From a virus: DNA of 53,393 nucleotides. A program made the position numbers and the translations under genes. How positions within the stretch are numbered: the stretch's first letter is position 1; the number at the start of each line of letters is the position of its first letter. The stretch lies in IMG/VR virus record IMGVR_UViG_3300043775_001487, positions 1 to 53,393 of that record, one strand, 5' to 3'. Below the pieces are notes generated by a model. The model searched no databases. It saw only the letters and a list, made by a program, of their open reading frames with translations, and was not told the origin of the DNA. Of the stretch, positions 9,774-51,192 are shown one piece after another.

Positions 9774-9780
9774 CTAAATA
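9774..9780 (+). promoter_or_regulatory. Late promoter box for the fibre operon
   Basis: AGGCTAAATA just after the DUF4116 stop and 68 nt before the next ATG. A small hairpin (GCAGA and TCTGC, 9799-9813) lies in the leader, then TAAGGAG. Confidence 0.6.
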
Positions 9781-9848
9781 CCGTATCTAAGTAATTATGC
9801 AGAATCCCTCTGCGTAGACCTAGAACGTCAACTATAAGGAGAAAACAA

Positions 9849-10232
9849 ATGGGACGTCCGTTAAAAAGAGATGTGAATGGTATTTTAGTATTTGGTACAT
9901 ATACCGGTGATGCAGGTATTCGTTGCGAAGCGTATATTGGTGGAAGTAATCAAAATGACGTGTATATTGTACGTCAACGTGGTGTAAGAACTTATTTGGT
10001 ACACGACACCAGTGCGGGTACTGAAGTTATCGCACGATTGGTTGCTGGTACACCTGCTGCGGCTGGTGAAATGAGATTAACTGGCTATATTGATGGTGCT
10101 GATACACCAGTTTACTTGAGAAAGTTAACTAAAAAATCTGCGATTGATTTTAACAACAACAAGTATCGTTGGGAATTGACCAACTATGCGGATTCAACAG
10201 CTGATCAAATCAAATTGACTCCATACGTATAA
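9849..10232 (+). CDS. Small virion structural protein of the fibre operon
   Basis: This 127-residue, beta-rich protein (MGRPLKRDVNGILVFGTYTG, then YIVRQRGVRTYLVHDTSAG and a C-terminal YRWELTNYAD) sits 10 nt ahead of the first fibre gene. It contains no enzyme motif. From memory, small proteins starting MGRPLx(K/R)..NG are found next to fibre or neck genes in T4-like marine phages and are detected in virions, which supports a structural role, perhaps a connector or decoration protein. TAAGGAG precedes the ATG and TAAGGAG follows for the next gene, so the two are probably co-expressed. Confidence 0.55.
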   Translation: MGRPLKRDVNGILVFGTYTGDAGIRCEAYIGGSNQNDVYIVRQRGVRTYLVHDTSAGTEVIARLVAGTPAAAGEMRLTGYIDGADTPVYLRKLTKKSAIDFNNNKYRWELTNYADSTADQIKLTPYV

Positions 10233-37811: not shown

Positions 37812-39431
37812 ATGGCAAACAGAAACCTAGATGGCGTTCAAATCTTAAGAGCACATCAAAAACAACAATACACACTTGAACAAGTACAACACTTAGAGAA
37901 ATGTATGGATCCAGTTACTGGTCCACTTTACTTCTGCAAAAACTTCTTGAAAATCCAGCATCCAACTAGAGGTGCTATCCCATTTGAACCATACGAATAT
38001 CAAGAAAGATTGATTCAAGCATATAACGATAATACTTATACAATCGCTATGCTACCACGTCAGATGGGTAAAGCCATCTGCAACGAAACTCCAATTTTAA
38101 CACCAACCGGTTTCAAACGAATGGGTGATATCCAAGTCGGTGATACTATCTATACACCTAAAGGTACACCAACCGAAGTAACTTTCATTACCGAAACAAT
38201 GAAAAATCGTACTTGCTATACTATCGAATTCTCACATGGCGAAAAGATCATTGCCGATGCTCATCACCTATGGACTTGGTATGATCCAGGCTACGAAGAC
38301 TTGATCACCGAAAATACAGAATACTTAATTAAACGATTCACCAAGTTTAAAACGGCTAATGTTAAAATTAGTATGGATCATACCAAACTCATTGAATTCG
38401 AAAAGAAACCAATGAAACTAGATCCATATCTGGTTGGTCTTTGGATGGGTAATGACCCTGAAGTAAACCAATTAAGATGTTACACCCATGAATATACCAG
38501 ATACAACGAGATGTTCAAATCCCATGGTCTTACCATGTCAGAATTAACCCTAAGACGACATAGTAAACGATTGGGTATGTACTCTGTTAATAACCTAGAA
38601 TTCATGGTAAAACCTGTTCTAAACAAAGATAATACCCTTCCAGATGAAATGTTAATTAATGATTCTGAAACTCGTTTACAACTTATTCAAGGTATTATGG
38701 ACGTGTGCGGTAGTGTAACCGATACAGGATACTGTACATTTAAACATAACAACGAAAAGATAACGGAACAAGTACGATTTATCCTATCTACACTAGGTGT
38801 TAAAACACATTTGAAAGTCGAAGTCTGTAAGTTTAAAACCAATTACTTCCTTACTTTCTCAACCAAACACCTGAAACTCTTTACCTTATCTGAAAAATTG
38901 GATAAAGCACGATTAAGTACTCACTTCCCAAATAATGAACGGGTGTATATTAAAAATATCACCAAATCAAAATCTGTACCAGTTAGATGCTTACAAGTGG
39001 CAGATAAGAAACATCTATTTTTAGTGGGTAAAACTCTAGTACCAACACATAACACTACTTGTGCTAGTGGCTATCTACTTTGGTATACCATGTTCGTACC
39101 CGAAGCCCAAGTACTGATTGCTGCTCATCTATATGCCGGTGCACAAGATATTATGAACAGATATCGGTATGCCTATGAGAACTTACCAGACTTTATTCGT
39201 GCTGGTGTTTATTCATATAACAGGAATACAATCGAATTTGATAATGGTGCTCGTATCCAAGCAACCACCACTACTGAAAATACAGGTCGAGGTAAGTCGC
39301 TTTCTTTGATTTATTGCTTAGATGGCGATACTACTGTTCGTATCAGACACAAGGAAACTCTTGTAGAAGAAGAGATTTCACTCGCTGCGTTATATCAACG
39401 TCTTGACCCAGAGGTTCGGGTTATTGCTTAA
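37812..39431 (+). CDS. 17: Large terminase gp17, N-terminal part with two intein segments
   Basis: This 539-residue product has four parts. Residues 1-87 are the N-terminal ATPase region ending in Walker A PRQMGK. Residues 88-414 are an intein. Residues 415-501 continue the ATPase (TTCASGYLLWY ... ENTGRGKSLSLIY). Residues 502-539 start with CLDGDTTVRI, the N-terminal fragment of a second, split intein. The rest of the ATPase and the nuclease come from the gene at 41670. The joined exteins read PRQMGK-TTCASG (Walker A) and LSLIY-CDE (Walker B), as in T4 gp17 (SRQLGKTT, MIYIDE). gp17 is the packaging motor. AAGGAAAT precedes the ATG. Confidence 0.92.
   Translation: MANRNLDGVQILRAHQKQQYTLEQVQHLEKCMDPVTGPLYFCKNFLKIQHPTRGAIPFEPYEYQERLIQAYNDNTYTIAMLPRQMGKAICNETPILTPTGFKRMGDIQVGDTIYTPKGTPTEVTFITETMKNRTCYTIEFSHGEKIIADAHHLWTWYDPGYEDLITENTEYLIKRFTKFKTANVKISMDHTKLIEFEKKPMKLDPYLVGLWMGNDPEVNQLRCYTHEYTRYNEMFKSHGLTMSELTLRRHSKRLGMYSVNNLEFMVKPVLNKDNTLPDEMLINDSETRLQLIQGIMDVCGSVTDTGYCTFKHNNEKITEQVRFILSTLGVKTHLKVEVCKFKTNYFLTFSTKHLKLFTLSEKLDKARLSTHFPNNERVYIKNITKSKSVPVRCLQVADKKHLFLVGKTLVPTHNTTCASGYLLWYTMFVPEAQVLIAAHLYAGAQDIMNRYRYAYENLPDFIRAGVYSYNRNTIEFDNGARIQATTTTENTGRGKSLSLIYCLDGDTTVRIRHKETLVEEEISLAALYQRLDPEVRVIA
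38073..39053 (+). other. Class 3 intein in Walker A of gp17
   Basis: This 327-residue in-frame insert begins AICNETPILTPTGF and ends LVPTHN before Thr. It lacks an N-terminal Cys or Ser. Block B is GEKIIADAHHLWTW with Trp at position 12 and His at 10; block F has Cys in VRCLQV where class 1 inteins have Asp; block G has Thr before HN. Trp, Cys and Thr together define class 3 inteins. The middle holds a LAGLIDADG-like domain with altered motifs (YLVGLWMGND and QGIMDVCGSV), so the endonuclease is probably dead. Confidence 0.88.
39315..39431 (+). other. Split intein N-fragment at Walker B of gp17
   Basis: These are the last 38 codons of the first terminase gene. They begin with Cys (CLDGDTTVRIRHKE) and end with a normal stop. 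The segment covers only intein block A, much shorter than the ~100 residues of usual split inteins, and it directly follows LSLIY. It matches the design of AceL-TerL-type atypically split inteins. Confidence 0.87.
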
Positions 39432-39432
39432 T

Positions 39433-39449
39433 GGCTCGCTGACGCTCGC
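39433..39449 (+). repeat. Dispersed hairpin family, copy 6 (shortest)
   Basis: GGCTCG, C, TGAC, G, CTCGC: the inner stem is reduced to 1 bp. It starts 1 nt after the stop of the split terminase N-gene. Confidence 0.6.
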
Positions 39450-39495
39450 ACATATAATATGAAACTAAAAGACGTAACTATCCATTAATAGAATA

Positions 39496-39836
39496 CTAAA
39501 AGATGATTGTCTTAATAGGTATATTATCTTTTAGTTATGATGTTCTTATTGATGTTTTATATGTGATGTTATTATTAATGATATTATAGATGATCTTATA
39601 GATGATGTTTATTACTGATGTTATTAATGATCTTATTGATGTGAGTTATTAATGAATTATCTTTTAGTTTAAAATGTATGTGTTCGAATAGATATAAAAT
39701 GTACGTGTGCATCTGGTAAAAAGCTAAAATGTATGTGCGCGAATGGAAACAGCTATAAGGCAATTATCTTTTAGGTTCAAAATGTGCGTGCGCGTGGCTT
39801 AAGCAGGTAGGATATAATGGATCTATTATCTTTTAG
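39496..39836. repeat. Cluster of CTAAAAGATAATT motifs and AAAATGTRYGTG repeats
   Basis: Five motif copies lie at 39496 (GATGATT variant), 39523, 39655, 39762 and 39825, the last four inverted. Between 39671 and 39794 are four imperfect units beginning AAAATGTRYGTGY (starts 39671, 39696, 39726, 39779). The stretch 39536-39655 is degenerate GATGTTATTA-like low complexity. No open frame of note. It lies between the two halves of the split terminase. Confidence 0.65.
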
Positions 39837-39849
39837 GATTATCTAATAT

Positions 39850-40385
39850 GCTCCTACAACTATAGATTTAAGATAGAATCATTAATAGCTTTATTATAGA
39901 GGCTTTTAATACTGCGGTATGTGGAGCGGAACATCTTAACCCGAAAAACTCGGGTTAATTCAAAGCATTCTCAATTGGGTTTAAAGTAATTGAAAAGTTC
40001 TGCGTACAAGTATCGCATCACAGCAGCAGTAGAGCATTACAGAGGCGGTCAGCCGGTACCTCGAGCTCAGTCTTATTAATCTGACGGTGGCCACATAAAC
40101 AACTGCTACCTCATTTATGTGACGTGGGTTTTCTCAACCCATCTTTAGCCTTTGTATATCTTTTTGCTATAACACAAATGGGTTGTATGAAGGCATATCC
40201 CATAACTCATCTGGTGGGGTAGTGTGTTATATCTCCGTTGCTAACTTCGGAACTTCCATCCCTTGTGATCAAGTAGTCCAAGGTTTAAGGGCACGTAATG
40301 GTCGCCTGTGCGCGGCTTTCTTAGCAATTCTCTCGTCTTTCTATGTTCTATCTAGTAATTCGACGAGCAAGGTTTGGCTGGTGCC
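39850..40385 (+). ncRNA. Candidate structured RNA between terminase halves
   Basis: No convincing gene is present over about 540 nt, and base composition is less AT-rich than the flanks. Perfect local hairpins occur in series: TTAACCCG/CGGGTTAA (39936-39958), CAATT/AATTG (39972-39992), TGCG/CGCA (40001-40017), GTCAG/CTGAC (40048-40085), CACATAAA/TTTATGTG (40092-40121), TGGGTT/AACCCA (40125-40141) and CCTTG/CAAGG (40261-40283). This suggests a large folded RNA, strand inferred as plus. I cannot match it to a family by eye; GOLLD-type phage RNAs are one class to compare. It could also be a decayed insertion. Confidence 0.35.
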
Positions 40386-40465
40386 TAAAAGATAATAGAG
40401 TAATTGCTTTTGTGTAAGTAGACTTTGTGTCGGTACTGATTTGAGATGGTCTCTAAAAGATAATT
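40385..40465 (+). repeat. Two CTAAAAGATAAT motif copies
   Basis: Copies at 40385-40396 and 40453-40465, in the opposite orientation to the cluster at 39523-39836. The segment to 40660 holds repeated words (GCTTTTGTGTAA, GAGATGGTCTCT, GTGTCGGTA) but no gene. Confidence 0.6.
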
Positions 40466-40667
40466 GAGTAATAGACTTGGTGTCGGTAATGATTGAGATG
40501 GTCTCTGCAAACTGCTTTTGTGTAACTGCTTTTGTATAAGTATGATTAATTATAACTTAGATTATGGGGACTGTCAACCTATTTTTCAAGGTATCTCGGG
40601 TAATTCTTTAGTATAGTTAATTGTAATCTATTTGGATTGGGTTGTCAAGGGCTTTTTCGATTATCTT

Positions 40668-40946
40668 TTAGACATCACGAACAGCAAGCACACTCCATTT
40701 ACAACTTTTCAAATCAGTGTCATGTTCAACAAGATCTGGAAATGGGTACAAACTTTTAGCATGTCGATCACCTTGCTCTTCACTCGACCAATACCAGTGA
40801 ATTCCTGTAAATGCTCTAAACTTCCTAAACTCTTCTTCAGTCGGTAATCTCCACCCAATTCTACCATCTACATTTAATGCAAAGCAGTAAAATTTGGCAG
40901 TATCCCAGTCCATACTTAATTTGGTTTCGTAGAATTCTAGGGTCAT
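40668..40946 (-). CDS. DUF1566-like protein
   Basis: This 92-residue protein contains WDTAKFYCFALNVDGRIGWR and LPTEEEFRKFRAF, the DUF1566-type signature, then IHWYWSSEEQ and a C-terminal VLAVRDV. It is closely related to the two genes at the window start. Its TAA stop is part of the dispersed motif (CTAAAAGATAAT on the minus strand). Its ATG overlaps the upstream gene's stop by ATGA. It lies antisense inside the gap between the split terminase halves. Function unknown. Confidence 0.65.
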   Translation of the reverse strand: MTLEFYETKLSMDWDTAKFYCFALNVDGRIGWRLPTEEEFRKFRAFTGIHWYWSSEEQGDRHAKSLYPFPDLVEHDTDLKSCKWSVLAVRDV

Positions 40947-41560
40947 TTGATATCTCTTACTGGGTGAATTAAATACATTTCATTTGGGTCATCACCGATA
41001 TCATCAGAATGCCAATACATTCCATGCATGAAGTTAAAGTGATAGCATTCTTTAGGAGTAGGAAACCGCCAGCCAATCTTTCCATCAATGGTAAGTGAAA
41101 AACAATACAACTGTGCTTCTTCTAATGTAACGTCTTTGATATAAGATCGTGGTGCTAATTCAACTGGAATACTGTTGAACGGTTCTTTTGTTCTAACAGC
41201 TCTAACATGTAATTCCCAATCATCAAACGCAATATCATGAACCTCGGTTAGAAAATCATAGGTTTGAATCACCGCATAAGGTTCCACGCCATCGTCATCT
41301 TTGTCAGGATCGGTAATATCATAATCGCAAGTCCAATAATCTGGGGTCTCAACTGAACCATCAACATACGCATCACATAACTTAGTATCTAATCTAACTT
41401 CTTGTAAGTATTGCTCCCGTACAACTAACAACTCTTCATATGTTGGTAATCTCCAGTCGTATTTCCCGTCTACTTCTAGGTTATTGCAGTAATCAATTGC
41501 ATCTTCCCAAGTCGTTATAATCTCAGTTTTTTTCGGTGCTAATTCTAAGTTAAAGTTCAT
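40943..41560 (-). CDS. Two-domain DUF1566-like protein
   Basis: This 205-residue protein has two DUF1566-type units: residues 15-120 (WEDAIDYCNNLEVDGKYDWR, LPTYEELLVV ... ELHVRAVR) and residues 135-205 (LEEAQLYCFSLTIDGKIGWR, FPTPKE ... YLIHPVRDIK). The second unit resembles the neighbouring gene and the genes at 1-651, so the family has expanded by duplication and fusion within this phage. No signal peptide is visible. Role unknown; related domains occur in bacterial surface proteins. Confidence 0.65.
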   Translation of the reverse strand: MNFNLELAPKKTEIITTWEDAIDYCNNLEVDGKYDWRLPTYEELLVVREQYLQEVRLDTKLCDAYVDGSVETPDYWTCDYDITDPDKDDDGVEPYAVIQTYDFLTEVHDIAFDDWELHVRAVRTKEPFNSIPVELAPRSYIKDVTLEEAQLYCFSLTIDGKIGWRFPTPKECYHFNFMHGMYWHSDDIGDDPNEMYLIHPVRDIK

Positions 41561-41625
41561 GCAGATATGAAAATGTAAGTTATTGGTATGGTAACTATAT
41601 CATATATGTATACGTTATGCAACTA

Positions 41626-43158
<1,533 letters not shown>

Positions 43159-43186
43159 CTATAACAAAAAGGACAACCAATGGAAC

Positions 43187-43260
43187 TCGGCAAGGAAGCC
43201 GAGTGACCCCCTAGGACGGGTTGCGACGCGCTAGCGGAGCAGAGGACGCGAGGGTCATTT
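43187..43260 (+). other. Structured left part of the TnpB element
   Basis: CTCGG and CCGAG (43187-43204, loop CAAGGAAG) form one hairpin; GACCC (from 43205) pairs with GGGTC near 43252-43257 across a GC-rich stretch containing CGCGCTAGCG. The GC content is far above the flanks, as at IS200/IS605-type ends. Confidence 0.45.
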
Positions 43261-43333
43261 AATTGGCATGAGCGGCTACTGTCTTACCCGTTATTATACA
43301 GATATCGCTTACCAAGTCAATTTTTAATTTAAC

Positions 43334-43339
43334 TAAATA
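43334..43339 (+). promoter_or_regulatory. Late promoter box before tnpB
   Basis: ACTAAATAG is followed by 5 nt and the tnpB ATG, giving a predicted leaderless late transcript under phage control. Confidence 0.5.
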
Positions 43340-43344
43340 GAGAT

Positions 43345-44616
43345 ATGAGCACATCTACTAAAATCACTGGATACAAAACGAAATGCCTGTTGAATCAGGT
43401 ACAGATCGCTTTGTTCGATAAATCAGTAGATGGTTGTGTATTCGCATATAACGAATTTCTTGCATTGGTGAATGCCGAATATGCCATAACTGGTAAGATT
43501 TCTACCAAATGCTGCAGTGTTAAAGAATTAAGAAATAACAACCCGTGGTTAAAAGAGCTATCTAATCGAGTAATCGATGGAGCTCGTCTTAATCTATTGG
43601 ATGCATTTAACCGGTTCTTTACGAAGCAAAATGACTTTCCTACATTTAAAAATCGATATAGCAAGAGATCACTAAGACATGCCGGTGATTGCTATTTGTA
43701 TATGAAAAATGGGTATATGTACGCATTTATTCCAAAAATTGGTCATGTAAAGCTATTAACTGATTTTGCGGATTCACCTAATAAATTTGATTATACAACC
43801 GTTAGCGGTGTAACATTATCGCAGGATAGTCTTGGAAACTTTTATGTCTCATTTCATGCGAAATCAACAACGGCTCATTTACCGAAAACCTATAAAACTG
43901 TTGGTATTGATCCAGGTCTTACTACTTTTGCAACCTTAAGTACTGGTAAAAAGATCAAGAATCCAAGATTCCGTGAAAGAACTGAAGACCGTATGAAAGC
44001 GCTTCAGCGTAAACTCGCGAAATGCACCAAGAACTCAAGAAGATACAACAAATACAAGAAACAAATAGCCGCACTTCATCAGAAATCGGCAAATCAATTA
44101 AATGACTTTCATAAGAAAGCAGCAAATAAAATAACTAAAGGCTACGACCACATCTGTATCGAAAAGACACAAACGAAGAACATGATGTCTCGTGGTAAAA
44201 AGAAAACAAAAAGCCCTAGACGCCTAGGGAAATCATTCGCTCAAGTCGGAATCAGTGCATTCCGTGAAATCTTGATAAAAAAGGCGGAGCTTGTTGGTAA
44301 ACAAGTACATCTTGTACCAGCACGCAATACAACAAAAACTTGTAGTAGTTGTGGTCATATCCACAACGATTTAACTCTTAAAGATCGGACATGGATTTGC
44401 CCCGTTTGCGGTATTGATCATGATCGAGACATAAATGCTGCCCGTAATATTTTACAAAAAGGGCAAGCTATTCGGTTTACCGGAGGTGGACTTGTTGCAC
44501 TGGGCAACAACACCGGGTTACCTAAACAAAAAAGGATGCCGCAAAGCGGGACACGTCCCGTTAGCAAAAGTACCAGTTCAGCTACTAGTAGTACCAGTAG
44601 CCTACCTGTTATTTAA
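43345..44616 (+). CDS. tnpB: TnpB RNA-guided nuclease
   Basis: This 423-residue protein has the OrfB/TnpB layout: a helical N-terminal region (residues 1-110), a beta region, then a RuvC domain with catalytic Asp189 (VGIDPGLTTFATLS), Glu273 (HICIEKTQTKNM) and Asp362 (DHDRDINAARNIL). A four-Cys zinc ribbon (C333, C336, C352, C355: CSSCG ... CPVCG) is inserted between the last two, and KSFAQVGISAFREIL is typical. All catalytic residues are present, so it is probably active. The last ~40 residues are Ser/Thr-rich, as expected where the coding end overlaps the omega RNA. No usual ribosome-binding site precedes the ATG. Confidence 0.92.
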   Translation: MSTSTKITGYKTKCLLNQVQIALFDKSVDGCVFAYNEFLALVNAEYAITGKISTKCCSVKELRNNNPWLKELSNRVIDGARLNLLDAFNRFFTKQNDFPTFKNRYSKRSLRHAGDCYLYMKNGYMYAFIPKIGHVKLLTDFADSPNKFDYTTVSGVTLSQDSLGNFYVSFHAKSTTAHLPKTYKTVGIDPGLTTFATLSTGKKIKNPRFRERTEDRMKALQRKLAKCTKNSRRYNKYKKQIAALHQKSANQLNDFHKKAANKITKGYDHICIEKTQTKNMMSRGKKKTKSPRRLGKSFAQVGISAFREILIKKAELVGKQVHLVPARNTTKTCSSCGHIHNDLTLKDRTWICPVCGIDHDRDINAARNILQKGQAIRFTGGGLVALGNNTGLPKQKRMPQSGTRPVSKSTSSATSSTSSLPVI

Positions 44617-44672
44617 ACGTCTATTCACGGTTATCCCGTGAACCGAGGACACGACGTCCGAAGTTCTCAGGG
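44480..44672 (+). ncRNA. Probable omega (reRNA) guide RNA scaffold of TnpB
   Basis: The 3' end of tnpB and following bases contain GGGAC/GTCCC (44549-44561), TTCACGG/CCGTGAA (44624-44642) and GGAC/GTCC (44647-44659) hairpins, then the element end near 44665-44672. In TnpB elements the guide RNA covers this position, with its variable guide lying just past the right end. Boundaries are inferred. Confidence 0.5.
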
Positions 44673-44699
44673 ATGCCGCGAAATACCGAGAGAGAAACA

Positions 44700-45095
44700 A
44701 TGGACGAAATACACAACTTAAAATACGAAGAACACGACAAATTGAATGAAAATGCTATAGACGATGCAATCGTATTCCTACAGCAATTACTACCTGGGAC
44801 TAAACAACCAACCGTAGAAGTTCAGTTTGATGGTGAGATAGAATTGTATTGGATAACGGATTACTTGGAATTGCAGGTTGGGTTCTATGGCGATGGCACG
44901 TATTCGTTCTATGCTAAAAACAACAAACTCGATGACACTATCTCAGGTGATAACATCCCAGTAAATATCATTAGTCAGCGAATCGTACCTTATATTAATC
45001 CAAGAAAGGTCTTTGGATTAGAAGGATTATCAACAGAAGACATGAAACGACTAGATGGCATCAGTCAATTGAATGACCAAAGTCCCACCGAATAG
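44700..45095 (+). CDS. Hypothetical protein
   Basis: The start is taken as the ATG at 44700, preceded by GAGAGAGAAAC; an in-frame ATG at 44673 would lie in the TnpB element end. The 131-residue acidic product has AIDDAIVFLQQLLPG, then a beta pattern (VEVQFDGEIELYWITDYLEL, VGFYGDGTYSFYAKN) and ends LSTEDMKRLDGISQLNDQ. No family recognised. The TnpB element ends immediately before it, so the native promoter and start may have been displaced. Confidence 0.6.
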   Translation: MDEIHNLKYEEHDKLNENAIDDAIVFLQQLLPGTKQPTVEVQFDGEIELYWITDYLELQVGFYGDGTYSFYAKNNKLDDTISGDNIPVNIISQRIVPYINPRKVFGLEGLSTEDMKRLDGISQLNDQSPTE

Positions 45096-45109: not shown

Positions 45110-46828
45110 ATGGATACACGAAATAACATTGCAACAGATTTATTTTACAAAATACGTAGCAGATTCTCTGGTCTAAAATTAGGAACAGAGTCTGGTGAGA
45201 TAACTATTATCCCAGAGGATGCACGTTTCTTCGATTTTGATTATATGGAAGGTGAAACCGCTATTGGTCATGTGAGTATTAGTTTGGCTGAACAGAATTC
45301 CATGAAGGTATATTTCTCACATGGAATTACCGAAACCATGGATACAAATCAAAAGAACAACTGGTATGGGTTTTTAAAGGAGTTAAGGATATTTGCAAAA
45401 CGCAGGCTGTTAAACTTCGATCCTAGAGACATTGCCAAAGACAACCTAGATCAAAGAGACTATTCGTTCTTGAGCCAAAATGCAAAATCTGCAACACCAG
45501 CACCAATTGGAGAAAGTATAATGAGTGAAAGTAACCTTTATGGTACTAAAAACGTAAGCTATCAGAAGTTGATGGATACACGATTAATTATCAAGCACAG
45601 TAAAACCTTGAATGATGATATGGCACCTGGGTCTCGTTCACGCAACATCTCAGCCCTATTCGTAGAGAATAGTGATGGTGAAAGATTCAAATACCCATTC
45701 AAACACTTGGCTGGTGCTAGAGCTATGCAACGCCATGTTGCTAATGGTGGGTTGCCTTATGATGAACTTGGTAAATCTATTACTGGTATGAGTGAAGAAA
45801 TTGCACAGTTGAAAAGTTTTGGTAACTATGTTGTTAGAAACGATTTGATGAATTCAGATACTAATAATATGGTAGAACGTAGTACTGCCCAATTGGACCA
45901 CCTACGCGAAACTTTACACAAATTGGCAAAACAACATCACTACGAATCATACAAAGAAAACTTCAAAGCTGCCGCACCAATGGAAATGCCGCAATCTGTA
46001 GTTGAAGAATACAAAGATAAGTTCACTGTACGTAACTTCAAAGAAGATATCGCATCCGTGTTCCCTGTTATCTATAGATTGATGCAAGAAAACGGCATCG
46101 AGTATTCTGATATTGTTAGTATGACTTCTTCAGATGAACCTGTTTCTGAAGAAATCTCGGCTATTGACCCAATGTCTAAATTTGAACAATGGGCTATGAA
46201 CTTAGGTGAAGAAGATGCTATTGTTAGCACTGACCCAGAAAATCAAAAGTCTGCTATTGCTGAACTACAAGACTTGGTTAAAGAACCTTTACCTGCTGGT
46301 ATCGATGGGTTGAATGCCATTGAAAGCCTAAAAGGTATTATCGATGAACCCGCTTTGAATAGAGCAATCGTTAAATCTGCAAACGAAGATCCTGAAAAAT
46401 GCGTGATTCCTTTGATTCAATCTTTCTTGCAACAACGAGCACCTGAAGTAGTTGATCAAATCGATTGGGAACATGGTCATGAATCGGAACATTCGGATAC
46501 TGGTGAAACTGAAGTTGAAAAACTTGAGAAAGAAGACGTAGCCTCTGAATGCGGTGATTCCGATGAAGAAGAACGTGGTCACGGTAACGTAGATATGAAT
46601 GAACTATTCGAATACGTTAAATCTTTCTACGACCACATGGAAAACAAATTCCCATTAGGTCCAGAAAAAGTAACCATCATGGTTGGTAAGAAGTTCGGTG
46701 AATCAGCAGCTAATGCAGTTAAGAAGTTGATTGAACGTATGGCTCCTGAACAAGCTAGTGTTGGTATCCACGCTGCCCCCGAAGAATCTTCTGAAATCGC
46801 TCGCTTTAAGCAGTTAGCTGGAATTTAA
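45110..46828 (+). CDS. Conserved large phage protein, possibly virion-associated
   Basis: This 572-residue protein opens with RNNIATDLFYKIRSRFSGLK, then GEITIIPEDARFFDFDYMEG and IGHVSISLAEQNSMKVYF, a conserved beta domain. A middle region has MDTRLIIKHSKTLNDDMAPG SRSRNISALFVEN, and FKYPFKHLAGARAMQRHV. The second half is helical and acidic and ends EIARFKQLAGI, similar to the gp22 tail (DIRRLAGL). From memory, similar proteins occur in large T4-like phages with no assigned role. Late expression (TAAATA 6 nt before ATG) fits a structural or assembly part. The RFKQLAGI end may be a shared incorporation signal. Confidence 0.6.
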   Translation: MDTRNNIATDLFYKIRSRFSGLKLGTESGEITIIPEDARFFDFDYMEGETAIGHVSISLAEQNSMKVYFSHGITETMDTNQKNNWYGFLKELRIFAKRRLLNFDPRDIAKDNLDQRDYSFLSQNAKSATPAPIGESIMSESNLYGTKNVSYQKLMDTRLIIKHSKTLNDDMAPGSRSRNISALFVENSDGERFKYPFKHLAGARAMQRHVANGGLPYDELGKSITGMSEEIAQLKSFGNYVVRNDLMNSDTNNMVERSTAQLDHLRETLHKLAKQHHYESYKENFKAAAPMEMPQSVVEEYKDKFTVRNFKEDIASVFPVIYRLMQENGIEYSDIVSMTSSDEPVSEEISAIDPMSKFEQWAMNLGEEDAIVSTDPENQKSAIAELQDLVKEPLPAGIDGLNAIESLKGIIDEPALNRAIVKSANEDPEKCVIPLIQSFLQQRAPEVVDQIDWEHGHESEHSDTGETEVEKLEKEDVASECGDSDEEERGHGNVDMNELFEYVKSFYDHMENKFPLGPEKVTIMVGKKFGESAANAVKKLIERMAPEQASVGIHAAPEESSEIARFKQLAGI

Positions 46829-47241: not shown

Positions 47242-48054
47242 TTAGAGCAGTTCTTGAATAGCTGCCCAAGAAAGTTGATCCTTAGTCAAGATATGAATAA
47301 TAACATTATTATCTTTCATAGCTTGATTGATTTTCGGGATATCTTTTGGGATAAGCCAATCGTTCTTTGGGTCTAAGTAGATATCCTGTTCAGTTAGATA
47401 AAAGTCAGCAAAATACTTTTTCTTTTTACCACCTAGGAAGTAATACATGTGCGGTGGTCGTATCCAAGGGATTTGATTTACATCCAAATCAAAGGCAACT
47501 CGATACTCATAAGATGATTCTAACCAAACACGACCAGCGAATGGTGAATCATACCAGCCATATGCATGATTGTTCCGATTACCACCAAACAATGGGTTGT
47601 TTTTGGCAGTTCGAGATATGATCTCTTTGTAACAGTCATCCGAACATGTGCGACGATCACCTACTTTATGGTACCATTTACCACATTCCATACATTGTGC
47701 TACTCTAGTGTAGGGTGGTTTTGGATTAAGTTCGAGATTCTTGCGAATGGACGCACTTGTTTTTGCACGGTGTTTGGCAGTTGTTTTACGACCAACATTG
47801 TTATGTGATGCAGCGCAGCTAGTTGAACAAAACTTGTTATACGCCCTACTTGTGATTTTACCGCAATGTTTGCATCTACTTAAACCAGCGATATGAGTTT
47901 CAAGGTAAGAAACTAGTACTACCTTTTTGGAATAAATACAGGAGCACTTGGTAGTATCTTTTCTACCATTAACGCCACCATGAACGTGGTAGTGTGCATC
48001 CAATGAACGACTGTTGTCGAATTCTTTACCGCATATTTTACATTTATAAGTCAT
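47242..48054 (-). CDS. Homing endonuclease-like protein with zinc fingers
   Basis: The start is taken at the ATG at 48054; the open frame runs on across the tRNA region to 48171. The 270-residue product begins MTYKCKICGKEFDNSRSLDA HYHVH, a C2H2 zinc finger, followed by more Cys clusters (CSCIYS, CKHCGK...FCSTSC, CMECGKWYH...TCSDDC) and an NPLFGGNRNNHAYGW segment. The C-terminal nuclease-like core is LESSYEYRVAFDLDV ... KYFADFYLTEQDIYLDPKND, similar to Vsr/PD-type phage homing enzymes. Its TAA stop is part of a dispersed motif (47234-47245). It sits beside a tRNA gene. Confidence 0.72.
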   Translation of the reverse strand: MTYKCKICGKEFDNSRSLDAHYHVHGGVNGRKDTTKCSCIYSKKVVLVSYLETHIAGLSRCKHCGKITSRAYNKFCSTSCAASHNNVGRKTTAKHRAKTSASIRKNLELNPKPPYTRVAQCMECGKWYHKVGDRRTCSDDCYKEIISRTAKNNPLFGGNRNNHAYGWYDSPFAGRVWLESSYEYRVAFDLDVNQIPWIRPPHMYYFLGGKKKKYFADFYLTEQDIYLDPKNDWLIPKDIPKINQAMKDNNVIIHILTKDQLSWAAIQELL

Positions 48055-48109
48055 AATATTATATTGAAAGTTAGGTTGATAGGATGTACATGTGGGCCAT
48101 GCACATCCA

Positions 48110-48116
48110 TATTTAT
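48110..48116 (-). promoter_or_regulatory. Late promoter box, minus strand
   Basis: ATAAATA on the minus strand, 55 nt before the homing endonuclease ATG. Confidence 0.5.
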
Positions 48117-48140
48117 AAAGTTGGAAAATGTTGAGTTTTA

Positions 48141-48148
48141 TATAAATA
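48141..48148 (+). promoter_or_regulatory. Late promoter with exact T4 consensus before the tRNA
   Basis: TATAAATA lies 18 nt before the tRNA 5' end, the only full T4 consensus noted in the window. Confidence 0.6.
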
Positions 48149-48166
48149 CATTGTAAGTTAAAACAA

Positions 48167-48255
48167 GCCATCTTCGCATAGCGGCTATTGCACCGGTCTA
48201 GTAATCCGGCGAGGTTAAAAACTCATCATCGGTTCGAGTCCGATAGATGGCTCCA
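48167..48255 (+). tRNA. Atypical tRNA, long variable arm, anticodon AGU by position
   Basis: Acceptor arms GCCATCT and AGATGGC pair fully; T arm is ATCGG, TTCGAGT, CCGAT; CCA is encoded. The D arm has GCA/TGC, A14 and GG. The anticodon arm is CCGGT, CTAGTAA, TCCGG with one T-T mismatch at 31-39. With T33 and A37 the anticodon is AGU (Thr). The variable region is 18 nt with GAG/CTC stem, typical of Leu, Ser or Tyr tRNAs, not Thr. Charging identity is therefore uncertain. Confidence 0.85.
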
Positions 48256-49695: not shown

Positions 49696-51192
49696 ATGAA
49701 AGCATTTGACGTAAGTAAATTTCGTAAAACATTAACCAAGTCCATTGAAGGTCTTGGTGTTGGTTTCAATGACCCAACTGATTGGATTAGTTGTGGTAAT
49801 TATGCACTTAACTATTTGATTAGTGGTGATTTCAATAAAGGTATTCCATTAGGTAAGGTTACCGTGTTTGCTGGTGAATCTGGTTGCTTACCAGCATTGG
49901 CTAAGGTCGATGTCAAATACACGATTGATGGTGTTGAGGTTGCTGAAACAGTGACTGTTTCTAAACTTCGTTCTTTAGTTCACGATGACGCGGTTTTGAG
50001 TTTAAGTATTGCTACACCAGATGATTATCAACTCGTTGGTCAGTGGTTCGACAAAGGTTCATTAGCTGTTGTTCGTATTTCAACTGCTACTAGAAGTGCA
50101 GAATCAGCAACAAATCACTTGTATCAGTTGGAAGATGGTGAATGGGTTACTGCGGGTGCATTGACCATCGGTGATTCAGTTATGACGGTTGATGGTGCTG
50201 AAGAAATCGTTAGTAAAGAATTCTTGGCAGATGCTGAGTGTTATGATTTCGAAGTGTTACATCCAAACCACCGTTATTGGAGTGATGGATTCTCAAGTCA
50301 TAACAGTGGTAAGTCATATATTTGTTCTGGTAACATTGTTAAAAATGCACAGGAACAAGGTATCTTTGTTGTATTGATTGATACAGAAAACGCGTTGGAT
50401 GAGGCGTGGCTTCATGCGTTGGGCGTTGATACATCTGAAGACAAGTTGATTAGATTGAGTATGTCAATGATCGATGACGTTGCTAAGACTATTTCAGAGT
50501 TCATGAAAGAGATCAAAGCAATGGATGAAGCCGATAGACCTAAAGTTTTATTTGTTATCGACTCACTGGGTATGTTATTAACACCAACTGACGTAAACCA
50601 GTTTGACAGCGGTGAGTTGAAAGGTGATATGGGTCGTAAACCCAAAGCGTTATTTGCATTGGTTCGTAACTGCGTTAATATGTTCGGTAATTACAACGTT
50701 GGTATGGTGTGTACTAACCACACCTATGACTCGCAAGACCCCTACAATCCTGATCAAAAAGTAAGTGGGGGTAATTCTGCAGTGTATGCTTCTAGTATCT
50801 TAGTTGCAATGAAAAAGTTGAAACTAAAAGAGGATGAAGAGGGTAATAAAACATCTACAGTTCAAGGTATTCGATCTGGTTGTAAGATTATGAAAACTCG
50901 TTACGCACAACCATTCACTGATATCGAGGTTCACATTCCATATAACGAAGGTATGAGTTTGTACAGTGGTATGTTTAGCTTATTGGAAAATAAGAAACTA
51001 ATCCAAAAAGAGGGTAATCGGTACAGCTATTTGGATACCAATGGTGTTACTCACAAGTACTTCCGTAAAGAGTGGAATAAAAATGAGAATGGCATCTTAG
51101 ATTTGGTTATCTCGGAATTTGCTACTAAGTTGGCAGCGTCTGAACTAAAAGATAATGTAATCGAAGAAGTGGATGAGAATGAACTAGATTAG
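49696..51192 (+). CDS. uvsX: RecA-like recombinase UvsX with mini-intein
   Basis: This 498-residue product holds UvsX exteins of about 358 residues. Residues 1-63 end in VTVFAGESG; residues 64-203 are an intein; residues 204-498 resume with SGKSYICSGN, so the joined Walker A reads GESGSGKS. Later motifs are VVLIDTENALDEAWLHALGV, KVLFVIDSLGMLLTPTD (Walker B) and VCTNHTYDSQDPYNPDQKVS GGN. It catalyses strand exchange with UvsY and gp32, both encoded nearby. The coding end contains CTAAAAGATAATG. AAAGAGGAGAG precedes the ATG. Confidence 0.93.
   Translation: MKAFDVSKFRKTLTKSIEGLGVGFNDPTDWISCGNYALNYLISGDFNKGIPLGKVTVFAGESGCLPALAKVDVKYTIDGVEVAETVTVSKLRSLVHDDAVLSLSIATPDDYQLVGQWFDKGSLAVVRISTATRSAESATNHLYQLEDGEWVTAGALTIGDSVMTVDGAEEIVSKEFLADAECYDFEVLHPNHRYWSDGFSSHNSGKSYICSGNIVKNAQEQGIFVVLIDTENALDEAWLHALGVDTSEDKLIRLSMSMIDDVAKTISEFMKEIKAMDEADRPKVLFVIDSLGMLLTPTDVNQFDSGELKGDMGRKPKALFALVRNCVNMFGNYNVGMVCTNHTYDSQDPYNPDQKVSGGNSAVYASSILVAMKKLKLKEDEEGNKTSTVQGIRSGCKIMKTRYAQPFTDIEVHIPYNEGMSLYSGMFSLLENKKLIQKEGNRYSYLDTNGVTHKYFRKEWNKNENGILDLVISEFATKLAASELKDNVIEEVDENELD
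49885..50304 (+). other. Class 1 mini-intein in UvsX Walker A
   Basis: This 140-residue in-frame insert starts with Cys (CLPALAKVDVKYTIDG) and ends GFSSHN before Ser. Block B-like SATNHLYQL and block F-like YDFEVLHPNHRYWSDG are present. It has no endonuclease domain. Confidence 0.9.

What the first reader, a model, noticed from the sequence alone, without database searches (positions are those of the whole stretch)
43187..44672. Solo TnpB element in a phage with a putative omega RNA and phage late promoter
All RuvC residues and the zinc ribbon are intact, the Ser/Thr-rich tail overlaps hairpins of a guide scaffold, and no transposase is present. The ATG is 5 nt after a phage-type TAAATA box, suggesting recruitment into late expression. 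Guide sequence (bases just after the right end, about 44673 onward) would target the insertion site region of intein- and endonuclease-rich terminase relatives, acting like a homing nuclease.
Basis: partly seen in the sequence, partly recalled or inferred. Interest (0 to 1): 0.75.

Follow-up and report, generated by a model that had tools for sequence, protein, structure and literature searches.

The report
Phage TnpB element with empty-site guide
A 1.5-kb selfish DNA element in a large freshwater-type phage carries an intact RNA-guided DNA cutter (TnpB), has no transposase of its own, and carries a guide that matches the same spot in related phages that lack it, so it probably spreads between phages by cutting the empty copy, as homing endonucleases do.

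Summary
The element is window 43182-44689 (1508 bp, +/-1). Two related phages carry the empty site, ACCAAT^GAGAGAAACAATAGACG, interrupted with no target duplication. The 20 nt after the right end match both empty alleles 19/20, next to a putative TAM (C[A/C]AT). TnpB has its RuvC D-E-D residues and zinc-ribbon cysteines. The 3' region folds better than shuffles (z -3.7), with one compensatory pair. No Y1 transposase or serine recombinase was found in the window or in the 327-kb relative that carries two further copies.

Same-site copies in two phages are nearly identical (tnpB dS 0.018) although neighbouring genes differ (dS 0.18 and 0.61). Different-site copies within one phage differ by dS 0.28. 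That fits site-specific spread with rare jumps, but phage mosaicism is not excluded.

One extra copy sits beside a ~2.9-kb deletion whose edge lies 15-18 nt from the TAM, where TnpB is known to cut: perhaps a natural cut scar.

The guide targets the start of the gene after terL, not terminase. The TAAATA box is a real phage motif, but it travels inside the element. New member of a known kind; cleavage and homing are not shown experimentally.

The parts
43182..44689 (+). Whole TnpB element, 1508 bp
   Evidence: Boundaries from empty alleles L009 and L010 and from copies at other sites L003, L004; no target-site duplication; +/-1 nt because of a shared G
43177..43181 (+). Putative TAM / target motif CCAAT left of the insertion (CTAAT in L009, TCAAT at the L004 site, TCCAT at the L003 site)
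43182..43204 (+). Left-end hairpin ACTCGGC-AAGGAA-GCCGAGT; paired change to ACTCGGT-ATGGAA-ACCGAGT in L004
43333..43339 (+). CTAAATA box, 5 nt before the tnpB ATG; the phage's intergenic promoter-like motif
   Evidence: 11 of 13 + strand copies intergenic against a mean of 2.4 for the 105 permuted 7-mers; inside all four element copies
43345..44616 (+). tnpB, 423 aa, intact RuvC and zinc ribbon; dN/dS 0.12-0.20 between copies
44530..44689 (+). Right-end region predicted to give the omega (reRNA) scaffold; overlaps the tnpB 3' end
   Evidence: z -3.72 against shuffles; one pair changed on both sides, two or three on one side
44690..44709 (+). Predicted guide GAGAGAAACAATGGACGAAA; 19/20 match to the empty alleles (mismatch at position 13)
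44673..45095 (+). Interrupted downstream gene (original start MRETIDEIHNL at the empty site); now starts from the right-end ATG (MPRNTE-RETM...) or from the ATA->ATG change at 44700

Best explanation
This is a transposase-less IS200/IS605-type TnpB element living in jumbo-phage relatives. Its 3' transcript is expected to give an omega RNA whose guide is the ~16-20 nt flanking the right end. TnpB loaded with this RNA would cut the empty allele of a co-infecting relative next to a C[A/C]AT TAM, about 15-21 bp downstream. Phage recombination would then repair the break by copying the element in, so it behaves like an RNA-guided homing endonuclease. Jumps to new sites (three are seen) are rare and would need a transposase supplied in trans or an ectopic repair event. 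Shown: anatomy, empty sites, guide-target match, absence of a transposase in the records searched, and purifying selection. Inferred: expression, cleavage, homing.
For: Exact empty alleles with no target duplication. Guide matches 19/20 in two phages beside CTAAT/CCAAT; the second-site guide matches 17/18 in L024 and L026 beside TCAAT. Intact catalytic and zinc residues and dN/dS 0.12-0.20. No PF01797 or PF00239 in the window or in the 327-kb phage G001, with positive controls. Same-site copies window/L002: tnpB dS 0.018 against 0.179 (next gene) and 0.609 (terL C part), while the two copies inside G001 differ by dS 0.276. Substitutions in the element about 8/kb against 82/kb in the 500 bp on the left and 42/kb in the 500 bp on the right (p 5e-16 and 2e-6). 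TnpB biochemistry (TAM, guide from the right flank, cut at 15-21 bp) is from PMC8612924; gene-drive behaviour of TnpB in plasmids is from PMC11870625.
Against: The low-divergence block is one pair of phages, and a stretch further right (45191-46190) is also very similar (2-10 per kb), so ordinary mosaic exchange could explain it. The 20-nt guide of the window differs from both known empty alleles at position 13. G001 and the other records may be incomplete, so a transposase could be missed. RNA covariation rests on three distinct sequences. TAM inference rests on three sites.
Confidence: 0.7

Rival explanations
1. A defective IS605-type insertion that is inherited vertically and moves only when a host TnpA acts on its ends; TnpB serves retention after excision, not homing between phages.
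For: Insertion without target duplication next to a short motif and hairpins near both ends fit Y1 transposition; three sites occupied.
Against: No TnpA in the phages searched. The right-end sequence has no match in genome contigs beyond chance (6 hits, about 7 expected; none shows further resemblance to the right end). Same-site copies are far more alike than their flanks, while same-genome copies are old.
Confidence: 0.22
2. A domesticated phage TnpB gene (regulator or anti-competitor weapon) that no longer moves.
For: Phage-type CTAAATA box in all copies; purifying selection.
Against: Nuclease residues are intact; three insertion sites and empty alleles show mobility; the guide targets the empty site rather than an unrelated gene.
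Confidence: 0.06

Closest known systems
ISDra2 TnpB / reRNA (IS200/IS605 family, Deinococcus radiodurans)
   Same: RuvC D-E-D, zinc ribbon, right-end RNA scaffold overlapping the tnpB 3' end, guide from the right flank, insertion after a pentanucleotide ending in AT, no target duplication (PMC8612924)
   Different: No tnpA; distant in sequence (phmmer 4.9e-30 over residues 14-373); TAM appears to be C[A/C]AT rather than TTGAT; left-end hairpin begins only 3 nt from the end; lives in a phage
Solo TnpB genes of other phages (e.g. Bacillus phage BSP21, Aeromonas phage phiA009, Klebsiella phage vB_KpM_FBKp34)
   Same: Stand-alone tnpB between phage genes
   Different: 31-34% identity; their ends and empty sites were not mapped here
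TnpB gene drive of IS605 in plasmids (PMC11870625)
   Same: Cutting of empty alleles would bias inheritance in a multi-copy setting
   Different: There a TnpA is present and the setting is plasmids; here phage co-infection is inferred only
Phage homing endonucleases (e.g. intron-encoded endonuclease of phage PhiPA3, PMC11620839, abstract only)
   Same: Expected outcome: interference with a co-infecting phage that lacks the element
   Different: RNA-guided and reprogrammed at each new insertion, not protein-specified

Membership tests
IS200/IS605-type TnpB (RNA-guided nuclease) | OrfB_IS605 / TNB domains with RuvC D-E-D and zinc ribbon | tested here: met
IS200/IS605-type TnpB (RNA-guided nuclease) | Right-end structured RNA overlapping the tnpB 3' end, guide from the right flank | tested here: met
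   Structure z -3.72 with one compensatory pair; guide match to empty alleles; expression not tested
IS200/IS605 insertion sequence | Insertion without target duplication, 3' of a short conserved motif | tested here: met
   Empty alleles L009, L010 for the window site; L024, L026 for the right junction of the second site; reading frame for the third
IS200/IS605 insertion sequence | Y1 (HUH) TnpA transposase present | tested here: not met
   No PF01797 in G000-G004, positive controls ring; so it is a solo or non-autonomous element
IS607 element | Serine recombinase TnpA | tested here: not met
   No PF00239 in the records searched
IStron (group I intron + TnpB) | Group I intron in the element | tested here: not met
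   No Rfam intron match in the window; only 163 bp before tnpB, and shorter in L004
RNA-guided homing endonuclease | Cuts the empty allele and is copied into it | not testable with these tools
   Only indirect: divergence pattern

The most novel reading that the evidence does not exclude
The copy L004 in the 327-kb phage may be a natural scar of TnpB cutting. The target sulfotransferase gene keeps only 15-18 nt after the insertion point, then joins the tail of an APS-kinase-like gene normally ~2.9 kb away, and the left junction lies at a 5-bp microhomology (GAACT) with ~20 bp of target lost. The break edge coincides with the 15-21 bp cut distance of TnpB. If true, TnpB cutting in phages both spreads the element and deletes the target module, leaving no empty allele to restore, and offers a way to jump by end joining without a transposase.
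Probability: 0.3. Interest if true: 0.65.

Novelty: new member of a known kind. Interest (0 to 1): 0.5.

Why it matters
Solo TnpB genes are common in phages, but what maintains them without a transposase is open. Here the exact ends, the empty alleles, the guide-target match and three different insertion sites are all in hand for one small family, so RNA-guided homing between phages becomes directly testable. The possible cut-site scar would be in vivo evidence of TnpB activity in nature.

Tried and rejected
Terminase as guide target: rejected, because the guide matches the start of the gene after terL. Site-specific recruitment of a late promoter: rejected, because the box is inside all copies. 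IStron or intron: no Rfam match and too little space. Host source of the element: no TnpB relative by tblastn in genome contigs, right-end pattern hits there at chance level, and best phage and plasmid TnpBs only ~35% identical. Genome-wide excess of CTAAATA by plain count is not significant (14 against 13 expected); only its position is unusual. A search for other cut scars among 80 sulfotransferase loci found only the one in G001. The third site (L003) has no empty relative in IMG/VR; its empty site is inferred from the reading frame. Literature searches found no paper that describes TnpB homing between phages, but the library holds only open-licence papers.

Full report
Observation. The window is a 53,393-base virus record. 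ORF 43345-44616 (+) encodes a 423-aa TnpB. D189, E273, D362 and the four cysteines C333, C336, C352 and C355 are invariant among the phage TnpBs aligned and match ISDra2 TnpB. Four relatives at >=91% protein identity exist in IMG/VR: L001 (identical region), L002 (99%, same site), and L003 and L004, two copies at other sites of one 327-kb phage, G001. No other relative above ~35% was found in viral contigs, phages or plasmids, and none by tblastn in genome contigs.

Ends and empty sites. The site is empty in G001 (L009) and in another phage (L010): GGACAACCAAT^GAGAGAAACAATAGACGAAATAC in L010. The window reads ACCAAT|GGAACTCGG...AAATACCGA|GAGAGAAACAATGGACG, so the element is 43182-44689, one G being shared. 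There is no target duplication. The insertion separates the original ATG of the small downstream gene from its body. The right end supplies a new in-frame ATG, and an ATA->ATG change at 44700, seen in both filled alleles and not in the two empty ones, supplies another with a GAGAG ribosome-binding-like stretch (functional meaning inferred).

Guide. The 20 nt after the right end match both empty alleles with one mismatch at position 13. At the L004 site, L024 and L026 show the empty target ATCAAT^GAGAGGTCTTATCGACTC, 17/18 to the L004 flank. At the L003 site the flanks join in frame across TTCCAT^CGGTTTC. The three sites suggest a TAM near C[A/C]AT; this rests on three sites only.

RNA. The 160 nt before the right end fold at -51.3 kcal/mol against a shuffle mean of -37.2 (z -3.72). 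The consensus fold of the four copies has one pair changed on both sides (G-C to A-U in L004) and a few one-sided changes. The left-end hairpin also changes on both sides in L004. This is modest support, with three distinct sequences.

Promoter claim. CTAAATA is not in excess by count, but 11 of 13 + strand copies are intergenic and 5 lie within 60 nt of a start, against means of 2.4 and 0.7 for the 105 permutations of the same letters. It is therefore a plausible phage promoter motif. It lies inside every copy of the element, so the element is phage-adapted rather than recruited at this place.

Mobility without a transposase. No Y1 transposase and no serine recombinase were found in the window or in G001, while control genomes were positive. 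G001 carries two further, distant TnpB genes.

Homing test. Between the window and L002, tnpB has dS 0.018, the next gene 0.179 and the terL C part 0.609. Between the two copies inside G001 dS is 0.276, about the same as between either of them and the window (0.25-0.30). Substitutions per kb are 82 on the left (500 bp), about 8 in the element and 42 on the right (500 bp). So copies at one site in different phages are alike and copies at different sites in one phage are old: the pattern expected of site-specific homing, and the reverse of recent transposition within a genome. The caveat is that 45191-46190 is also very similar between these phages, so mosaic exchange of a larger patch is not excluded.

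A possible cut scar. In G001 the sulfotransferase-like gene ends at the element: only residues 1-66 are found anywhere in the record, and it is the only one of 80 loci truncated there. The right flank keeps 15 exact nt (17 of 18) of the target and then continues in the tail of an APS-kinase-like gene. In relative L192 that gene lies downstream of the sulfotransferase gene, about 2.9 kb from the target if L024 and L192 are laid end to end. The left junction falls at GAACT, shared by target and element end, with ~20 bp of target lost. TnpB cuts 15-21 bp from the TAM (PMC8612924). The coincidence fits a TnpB break repaired by joining, but it is one event, read from a metagenome assembly and noticed after the fact.

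Verdict. A genuine solo TnpB element with a guide to its own empty site: a known kind, in a new and distant subfamily with unusually complete natural evidence. Homing is the most likely mode of spread and is not proven.

Noticed in passing
window 37812-43073: The terminase large subunit looks fractured: ORF 37812-39431 carries the N part with an intein and the start of a second intein; ORF 41670-43073 carries an intein C half plus the terminase C part. About 2.2 kb of other sequence lies between, including an Lcl_C-domain ORF (40943-41560, -).
   Followed up: no
window 40167-40316 (-): Rfam Polynucleobacter-1 RNA (75 bits, gathering 37) inside the gap of the fractured terminase gene; RNA of unknown function in a possible mobile context.
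   Followed up: no
window 9779-9851 (+): Rfam freshwater-2 RNA just above the gathering score, overlapping a CTAAATA box that starts at 9774.
   Followed up: no
window 49696-51192: RecA/UvsX-like gene with an apparent intein inserted at the Walker A motif (GESG|CLPAL...HN|SGKS).
   Followed up: no
L009 1580-3184: Relative to the window, the terL C part of the 327-kb phage carries an extra ~1.6-kb insert, perhaps another intein.
   Followed up: no
window 47242-48171 (-): C2H2-like ORF (Pfam zf-C2H2 below its cut-off) overlapping tRNA-Thr 48167-48255; strongly diverged in L009/L010 (71-74% nucleotide identity) while neighbouring stretches are close; possible freestanding endonuclease.
   Followed up: no
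G001 (L228, L233): Two more distant TnpB genes in the same 327-kb phage, one beside a tail-fibre-like gene.
   Followed up: partly
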